Positions 36,658 to 38,076 of a stretch of 64,000 nucleotides of DNA are shown here, piece by piece. This stretch comes from Eremothecium cymbalariae DBVPG#7215 (lineage: Eukaryota; Ascomycota; Saccharomycetes; Saccharomycetales; Saccharomycetaceae). The notes below the pieces were generated by a model. That model was not told where the DNA came from. It did not search any database and saw only the letters and a program-made list of their open reading frames with translations. Position numbers and translations under genes: made by a program. The stretch spans positions 62,001-126,000 of the forward strand of contig NC_016456.1 of NCBI RefSeq assembly GCF_000235365.1, given 5' to 3'. Position 1 is the first letter of the stretch; every line of letters begins with the position of its first letter.

Positions 36658-38076
36658 TCAAATAGTTCTAGTCTTCTTACTCAATGGCTGATCGATGCTG
36701 AGCAGGTTGATATCATCGTTGTTTACCTTCTTGACAGTGACTTGAGGTGTAACGACCTCTGCATGGAAATCCTTGATAATTGAATCTACATCATCAATAT
36801 TCAAAGATCTCACATCACCGAGTCGCTTAATCTTGGCAGTAACCTCCTTGACCTGATTGTCTGATAACTTCAAGTTCAACTGGTCAACACGGGATTTGAT
36901 CGCATTCCACCCCGTCAGCCTATTTGCAAAATGGATGTACCGTGTCATACCGAAATCATGAGGATCAAGAATTTCATACGTTGAAGGGTTTGCTAGAATT
37001 GCTTTCGCATGGATACCTGCCTTGTGCGTAAACGCACAAAACCCAGTAATTGGATTGTTAAATGGAACATTAACTTCGACAGCATCCGCAACCAGATTTT
37101 CTATATCTCTGATTTTATGCAGTTTGTACTTAGACTTGACGTAGGCTGGAGCAGCGACAATCATTCTCGCCATTAGACCACCCAACGGCGTAATGCCATT
37201 CCTTTCACCGATACCCAATACAGAAACATCGATCAGCTTGGCACCACCTTCAAGCGCTGTGTAAGCGTTAGCAATGGCACAGCCGGTGTCATTGTGGAAA
37301 TGACATTCTACATCACAGGAAACCACAGACTTCAATGTCCTAACGAGCTCATAAACCTGCCTTGGGTTAGCACACCCCACCGTATCCGCAATACCAACTC
37401 TATTAACCCCTACCTTGTCAACGGTCTTGTAAATATTCAACAGGTCAACAAGGTCGGATCTAAACGAGTCTTCTGAGGAAAACCTGATCTCAATTCCCTT
37501 GGATTTCACGTACTCGATAACCTCGATCGCACTGTTTGCAATGTAATTCATATCCTTACCATGCGAATATTGCCTTAAAAACTTAGATGTCCCTATAACC
37601 ACATCCACACCATCCACACCTGTCTGGACGGCAATCTTTGCATCATCCATATGGCAACGAATATGTGTTAGAATTTTGGCTTTCAAGCCCAACTGGCATA
37701 TCGCCTCGCAGTCCCTCCTGGACTGCTCAGAGGCTACAGGAGATGTTAATTCTATATAATCCACACCAAAGTCATCCAAAGCCTTCGCAATCTCAATCTT
37801 CTTTTCTGTTGAAAAGAATGCATTAGCGAATTGTTCTCCCTCACGCAAAGTAGAGTCAATCAACTCAAAATTGTTCACATTAGACAGATAATCTGCTGGA
37901 TTTGGCCCGTACGGATTTTGCTGGAAATACGCTATTGCGTTCGTTGACTCCGTAACCTGTTTGAATTCTATATTACCCATTAGTATTAGTACACTGAACC
38001 ACTTTTTAGAATAAATTTCAACGCTTCGTCGTTGATTTTTCGATATTAAGAAACACATACCTTGATCCTGACTCAT
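36658..38076 (-). CDS. LYS21: homocitrate synthase Lys20/Lys21 (spliced)
   Basis: Proposed coding sequence joins 38061-38076 and 36658-37967. It encodes 441 residues, or 443 if the ATG two codons earlier (38082) is used. Homocitrate synthase condenses acetyl-CoA with 2-oxoglutarate, the first lysine step. The spliced N-terminus MSQDQEFKQVTEST lines up with Lys21 MSENNEFQSVTEST, which decides the intron. The TIM barrel begins with IDSTLREGEQFANAFF (catalytic Asp/Arg/Glu) and contains the metal site HFHNDTGCAIANAY. The C-terminal segment is basic (SKKTRTI). It is the single counterpart of LYS20 (YDL182W) and LYS21 (YDL131W). Unspliced reading is also open; see findings. Confidence 0.95.
   Translation of the reverse strand: MSQDQGMCFLISKNQRRSVEIYSKKWFSVLILMGNIEFKQVTESTNAIAYFQQNPYGPNPADYLSNVNNFELIDSTLREGEQFANAFFSTEKKIEIAKALDDFGVDYIELTSPVASEQSRRDCEAICQLGLKAKILTHIRCHMDDAKIAVQTGVDGVDVVIGTSKFLRQYSHGKDMNYIANSAIEVIEYVKSKGIEIRFSSEDSFRSDLVDLLNIYKTVDKVGVNRVGIADTVGCANPRQVYELVRTLKSVVSCDVECHFHNDTGCAIANAYTALEGGAKLIDVSVLGIGERNGITPLGGLMARMIVAAPAYVKSKYKLHKIRDIENLVADAVEVNVPFNNPITGFCAFTHKAGIHAKAILANPSTYEILDPHDFGMTRYIHFANRLTGWNAIKSRVDQLNLKLSDNQVKEVTAKIKRLGDVRSLNIDDVDSIIKDFHAEVVTPQVTVKKVNNDDINLLSIDQPLSKKTRTI
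37968..38060 (-). other. putative in-frame intron of homocitrate synthase
   Basis: The 93-nt segment starts GTATGT, carries overlapping TACTAAT branch sequences at 37985-37991 and 37979-37985, and ends ATATAG. It is 31 codons long with no stop, so retention also leaves an open frame. Splicing produces the Lys21-like N-terminus. Confidence 0.85.

What the first reader, a model, noticed from the sequence alone, without database searches (positions are those of the whole stretch)
37968..38060. Stop-free, multiple-of-three intron at the N-terminus of homocitrate synthase
GTATGT, overlapping TACTAAT branch sequences and a TAG acceptor bound a 93-nt segment. Splicing gives MSQDQEFKQVTEST, which lines up with S. 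cerevisiae Lys21 (MSENNEFQSVTEST). Unspliced RNA stays open and adds 31 residues, and an in-frame ATG at 37980, inside the intron, could start a third form. S. cerevisiae LYS20 and LYS21 have no intron. Two or three protein N-termini could therefore arise from one gene that was never duplicated, for example for nuclear or other targeting or for lysine feedback. Automatic annotation would miss the intron because the ORF is intact.
Basis: partly seen in the sequence, partly recalled or inferred. Interest (0 to 1): 0.78.

Follow-up and report, generated by a model that had tools for sequence, protein, structure and literature searches.

The report
In-frame intron in a lysine gene
A filamentous yeast's single gene for the first enzyme of lysine synthesis almost certainly carries a small, removable insert whose length and content happen to leave the protein readable even if it stays in; this is probably an ordinary insert rather than a built-in switch, but a quick RNA test could show otherwise.

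Summary
Window 37968-38060 (minus strand) is a 93-nt, phase-1, stop-free segment with GTATGT, two overlapping TACTAAT sites and TAG; removing it joins MSQDQ to EFKQVTEST. In 264 kb of this genome, six other GTATGT/TACTAAY/YAG sites of up to 150 nt lie in recognisable genes, five with lengths that demand splicing. I take it as a real spliceosomal intron (about 0.94). The genome fits Eremothecium cymbalariae; homocitrate synthase is single-copy.

The proposed function is not supported. A crude model expects about 7 stop-free 3n introns per 232, and the survey holds a second probable one. The 31 residues show no transmembrane helix or unusual amphipathicity, no relative was found, and they precede the conserved fold. 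PTC7 in the same genome has a 54-nt in-frame intron that does code a hydrophobic segment.

Best reading: an ordinary, mostly spliced 5'-proximal intron whose retention is harmless. A regulated PTC7-like double product remains possible (about 0.12). No transcript data or identifiable Eremothecium orthologue was available.

The parts
36658..38082 (-). homocitrate synthase gene (LYS20/LYS21 orthologue), unspliced ORF of 474 aa
   Evidence: PF00682 4.5e-91, HCS_D2 5.8e-38; 3ivs_A homocitrate synthase 1.8e-210; single-copy
38061..38076 (-). exon 1 from the start codon favoured by homology, coding MSQDQ plus the first base of the next codon; an in-frame ATG lies 6 nt upstream at 38082
37968..38060 (-). 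93-nt putative spliceosomal intron, phase 1, stop-free in the reading frame
38055..38060 (-). 5' splice site GTATGT; contains in-frame ATG 38058
37979..37991 (-). two overlapping branch-site motifs TACTAATACTAAT
37968..37970 (-). 3' splice site TAG
37978..37980 (-). in-frame ATG inside the intron (would give MGNIEFKQVTEST)
36658..37967 (-). exon 2, with the whole conserved enzyme
38862..41258 (-). upstream tandem neighbour, a cullin (Cdc53-like); CDC53 precedes LYS21 in S. cerevisiae too (recalled)

Best explanation
It is an ordinary, constitutively or mostly spliced, 5'-proximal spliceosomal intron in the single homocitrate synthase gene of what is most likely Eremothecium cymbalariae. The spliceosome uses GTATGT, one of the two overlapping TACTAAT branch sites and the TAG that ends 11 nt after the second, and the main product is MSQDQEFKQVTEST... 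(inferred from sequence, not shown). Length 3n and absence of stops are a chance outcome. Unspliced mRNA would escape stop-dependent decay and may yield a little N-extended, probably active enzyme without a dedicated role (inferred).
For: Splice signals. The six other sites of this class in 264 kb lie in recognisable genes, five needing the splice. One of these, the MATalpha2-like gene, also uses TACTAAT, and Ashbya MATalpha2 is reported to have an intron (PMC3737163, passages; position not compared). Junction fits homologues. Most introns of E. cymbalariae lie near the 5' end and 232 are annotated (PMC3276169, passages). Chance: P(no stop, given same length, signals and phase, interior resampled) = 0.18; averaged over phase and spacing 0.079 at 93 nt, and about 7.1 stop-free 3n introns expected per 232. 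A second probable stop-free 3n intron of 60 nt lies in the MATa1-like gene. Forms with the insert show no TM (best KD17 0.90) and no unusual hydrophobic moment (745 of 2000 shuffles as high). No relative of the insert was found (2 hits among 8 candidates, P0002 and P0001, neither with the insert). RNA fold unremarkable (z 0.71).
Against: No RNA evidence that it is spliced, or how well. TACTAAT is not the consensus TACTAAC, so splicing could be inefficient. The expected count of 7 rests on an iid model and the lengths of ten introns; a version with one fixed spacing gave 0 to 0.18 open depending on phase, with 0 for phase 1. The survey shows 2 of 10 stop-free 3n introns where 0.3 is expected, though one of the two is the case handed to me. 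Without Eremothecium orthologues, selection to keep the frame open cannot be excluded.
Confidence: 0.72

Rival explanations
1. PTC7-like double product: regulated retention yields an enzyme with 31 extra residues (or one begun at an intronic ATG) with a different place or property, doing with one gene what S. cerevisiae does with LYS20 and LYS21.
For: Open frame and intronic in-frame ATGs; single gene; non-consensus branch sites. The S. cerevisiae PTC7 intron is also 93 nt/31 aa and changes localisation (PMC4607428, passages). GCR1 uses an intronic start in unspliced mRNA (PMC7826247, passages). PTC7 of this same genome has a 54-nt open intron coding a hydrophobic stretch.
Against: The insert lacks the TM that PTC7 has and is not unusually amphipathic. 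It precedes the fold. The Lys20 NLS is C-terminal. Chance suffices for the open frame.
Confidence: 0.12
2. Spliced intron whose retention merely tunes enzyme amount (for example slow splicing under stress), with the open frame irrelevant.
For: In S. cerevisiae unspliced transcripts are seen for every intron gene, the spliced form always having most reads (PMC4607428, passages); TACTAAT branch sites.
Against: No unusual RNA structure; no expression data.
Confidence: 0.1
3. No intron: the segment is coding or leader, and translation starts at 38076/38082 (long form) or at 37980 (MGNIEFKQVTEST).
For: The ORF is open; MGNIEF is as long before E-F as the N-terminus of P0004 (MSESEF).
Against: Full set of splice signals, with no clear false case among the seven GTATGT sites of up to 150 nt in 264 kb; MSQDQ fits the chosen homologues far better than LMGNI; insert GC 0.30 versus 0.43 in the exons; three in-frame ATGs precede 37980.
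Confidence: 0.06

Closest known systems
PTC7 intron of Saccharomycetaceae
   Same: 5'-proximal GTATGT intron, 3n and stop-free (93 nt/31 aa in S. cerevisiae; 54 nt here); phase 1 in both genes of this genome
   Different: PTC7's intron codes a transmembrane helix, is reported as 3n and stop-free in twelve species (PMC3597508, passages) and has reported localisation effects. None of these is shown for the LYS21 insert.
MRM2 in-frame intron of S. cerevisiae
   Same: 3n intron in an intact ORF (63 nt), not annotated in SGD according to PMC6726248
   Different: In MRM2 peptide and intron are reported conserved in sensu stricto yeasts. Of five FtsJ-family places in this genome I searched two with the GTATGT pattern and found none; which one is MRM2 was not settled.
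GCR1 spliced/unspliced isoforms of S. cerevisiae
   Same: an intronic start codon could give a further N-terminus
   Different: GCR1's intron is 739 nt and its intronic start is reported as used (PMC7826247, passages)
In-frame protointrons of Saccharomyces
   Same: in-frame splicing inside an ORF
   Different: Protointrons are reported as idiosyncratic to closely related species (PMC6726248, passages); here the signals are near-consensus and the spliced form matches homologues

Membership tests
budding-yeast spliceosomal intron | GTATGT-type donor, TACTAAY-type branch site, YAG acceptor at workable spacing | tested here: met
budding-yeast spliceosomal intron | removal joins exons in frame and fits homologues | tested here: met
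   (four chosen homologues)
budding-yeast spliceosomal intron | spliced transcript observed | not testable with these tools
   no transcript data held
PTC7-type retained in-frame intron | 3n length and no in-frame stop | tested here: met
PTC7-type retained in-frame intron | open frame conserved among relatives | tested here: inconclusive
   no identifiable Eremothecium relative (120 of 7796 hits listed), 30 or 43; intron peptide without homologue
PTC7-type retained in-frame intron | intron codes a recognisable targeting or membrane element | tested here: not met
   no TM-like stretch, hydrophobic moment reached by 745 of 2000 shuffles; simple indices only
PTC7-type retained in-frame intron | both mRNAs and both proteins exist with different roles | not testable with these tools
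   needs RNA-seq and proteomics
homocitrate synthase (LYS20/LYS21) | HMGL-like plus HCS_D2 domains, best solved relative a homocitrate synthase | tested here: met

The most novel reading that the evidence does not exclude
Eremothecium uses regulated retention of this intron to make two homocitrate synthases from one gene, doing by splicing what other yeasts do with the LYS20/LYS21 pair; the positively charged 31-residue extension would send or hold part of the enzyme elsewhere in the cell or alter its stability.
Probability: 0.12. Interest if true: 0.7.

Novelty: new member of a known kind. Interest (0 to 1): 0.3.

Why it matters
Functional intron retention is documented for very few yeast genes (PTC7 and GCR1, possibly MRM2). 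A metabolic case in a pre-duplication yeast would let one compare splicing and gene duplication as ways to two isozymes. As it stands the value is smaller: a probable intron in a key biosynthetic gene whose N-terminus should be annotated correctly, and a reminder that several stop-free 3n introns per yeast genome are expected by chance.

Tried and rejected
The search with residues 1-75 gave 2 hits from 8 candidates, neither with the insert. The viral contig scan found nothing. Hence no test of intron conservation.

N-terminal extensions in homologues (P0002, P0028, P0058, P0063) were considered as unspliced introns of the same kind. In each an ordinary MS- start follows directly after the extra residues, so they look like read-through 5' leaders; their DNA was not seen.

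Mitochondrial or nuclear targeting by the insert: simple indices show nothing unusual; dedicated predictors were not available. RNA structure of the intron: not more stable than shuffles (157 of 200 fold at least as well). Lysine feedback through the N-terminus: rejected as unsupported, the tail preceding the aligned fold.

Literature: searches (PMC open-licence library only; listings of 20 of 100, 15 of 402, 15 of 34,997, 12 of 22, 12 of 58 and 10 of 14 papers) listed none whose title or abstract start reports an intron in LYS20/LYS21 of Eremothecium; passages of two Eremothecium/Ashbya genome papers held no 'LYS2' term. That is not proof of absence from print. Papers were seen as passages, one also as outline with abstract (PMC4202332); none was read whole. 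Juneau et al. 2009 (PTC7) is not held.

Full report
What was checked. The finding concerns 37968-38060 on the minus strand. The sequence shows GTATGT at 38060-38055, TACTAATACTAAT at 37991-37979 and TAG at 37970-37968. The segment is 93 nt, enters after the first base of a codon, and is open in the reading frame. The unspliced ORF is 36658-38082, 474 aa. It has HMGL-like and HCS_D2 domains, and its best solved relative is homocitrate synthase 3ivs. Removal of the 93 nt gives MSQDQEFKQVTEST, 441 aa from ATG 38076 or 443 aa from ATG 38082.

Where it is. The window is contig C8:62001-126000 of a genome of 9,669,424 bases in 8 contigs. Published figures for Eremothecium cymbalariae are 9671 kb, 8 chromosomes and 40.3% GC (PMC3276169, passages). 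A 200-kb sample here has 39.9% GC. The species is thus an inference from size, chromosome number and composition. The genome has three PF00682 places: this gene, and two others that by ORF length and my recollection are isopropylmalate synthase and pyruvate carboxylase. Homocitrate synthase is single-copy by that search. The tandem upstream gene is a cullin; CDC53 precedes LYS21 in S. cerevisiae as well (recalled), so I call the gene the LYS21 orthologue. That S. cerevisiae LYS20 and LYS21 lack introns was not tested here (recalled); intron loss is reported as far more frequent than gain in this family (PMC4202332, abstract), so an old intron lost elsewhere would be the default history.

Is the intron real? 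By shuffling, the combined pattern is expected 0.09 times in the window and found at two loci. I then scanned the window plus 200 kb of C1 (264 kb). Seven sites have GTATGT, TACTAAY and a length of up to 150 nt. The six besides LYS21 lie in genes for Spc25 (88 nt), a MATalpha2-like homeodomain protein (56 nt), a sybindin/Bet5-like protein (64 nt), a MATa1-like homeodomain protein (60 nt), an HIT protein (89 nt) and an acidic ribosomal protein (103 nt) (the domain names are Pfam's, the mating-type names recalled). Five of the six lengths are not multiples of three. The MATa1-like intron is 3n and open, so there the support is gene type and position only. Three longer introns were recognised in the same stretch: L37e 345 nt, L6e 328 nt and the L29 family 334 nt. 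Chance sites do occur beyond 150 nt and with other donor hexamers: for instance two GTACGT sites of 99 and 106 nt lie inside long ORFs, and several others stayed unexplained. The MATalpha2-like intron also uses TACTAAT, which suggests that this branch site is tolerated here. The five residues MSQDQ score 12.25 against four homologues that I chose because they have five residues before E-F, whereas the unspliced letters at that place score 3.25; 19 of 1817 ATG-started 5-mers in the window score as high as MSQDQ. The intron is 30% GC and the exons 43%. I put the intron at about 0.94.

Is the open frame meaningful? Resampling the interior with signals and phase kept leaves 18% open. A first model with one fixed branch-to-acceptor spacing gave 0 to 0.18 depending on phase, 0 in phase 1 because the TAA of the branch motif then falls in frame. 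A model averaged over phases and spacing gives 7.9% at 93 nt; with one third for 3n and the lengths of the ten recognised introns, about 7.1 stop-free 3n introns are expected per 232. It is crude: iid letters, ten lengths. In the survey 2 of 10 introns are stop-free 3n (LYS21 and probably the MATa1-like one), 1 of 10 is 3n with stops (L37e), and 0.3 stop-free ones were expected. LYS21 was the reason for looking, so this is no fair test of enrichment. For a single gene the property is unremarkable.

Does the insert look like a signal? For forms that hold the residues GMCFLISKNQRRSVEIYSKKWFSVLILMGNI, no 17-residue stretch in the first 40 exceeds 0.90 on the Kyte-Doolittle scale, and the insert's best helical moment is reached by 745 of 2000 shuffles. 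The alignment to 3ivs begins at residue 52 of the unspliced protein, after the insert. In S. cerevisiae Lys20 the nuclear signal is C-terminal (PMC4330366, passages); the C-terminus here reads SKKTRTI, which may play the same part (inference). A region search with residues 1-75 found two proteins, neither with the insert.

Control in the same genome. PTC7, found through PF07228 (domain confirmed), has a GTATGT...TACTAAC...CAG intron of 54 nt, phase 1 and stop-free, which if retained adds a hydrophobic stretch (MWFIFWLLLIPFILTKT, KD 1.78) to the N-terminus. This agrees with the published pattern for PTC7 (PMC3597508 and PMC4607428, passages).

Alternative starts. In-frame ATGs lie at 38082, 38076, 38058 and 37980. 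The last two exist only in unspliced RNA or in a transcript that starts inside the intron. GCR1 of S. cerevisiae is a precedent for an intronic start (PMC7826247, passages). Scanning ribosomes would have to pass three in-frame ATGs to reach 37980, so that form is unlikely without a separate transcript start (inference).

Verdict. A real intron with high probability; an intact ORF on retention by chance with fair probability; a regulated double product possible but without positive evidence. The two missing pieces are transcripts and sister-species sequences, neither of which I could reach with the collections searched.

Noticed in passing
L024 2421-2474 (-), genome C8 near 359 kb: PTC7 orthologue with a 54-nt, 3n, stop-free intron coding a hydrophobic segment; a CAG 11 nt further on would give 65 nt and a frameshift.
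   Followed up: partly
L017, genome C1:236112-236171 (-): Probable MATa1-like intron of 60 nt, also 3n and stop-free, just before the homeodomain; a MATalpha2-like gene with a 56-nt TACTAAT intron (C1:237486-237541, +) lies about 1.3 kb away, so genes of both mating types sit side by side here.
   Followed up: partly
window 38069-38075 and 38312-38318: Two TGACTCA (Gcn4-type, recalled) sites at LYS21, one overlapping the start codon; such sites are not enriched in the window as a whole (7 found, 10.3 expected).
   Followed up: no
window 21632-21720 (+), 34500-34602 (-), 60631-60964 (-): Other probable introns in the window: HIT-domain gene, acidic ribosomal protein, ribosomal L29-family protein.
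   Followed up: partly
window 38018-38035: Perfect 6-bp hairpin TCAACG-ACGAAG-CGTTGA inside the intron between donor and branch site; overall fold not more stable than shuffles.
   Followed up: partly
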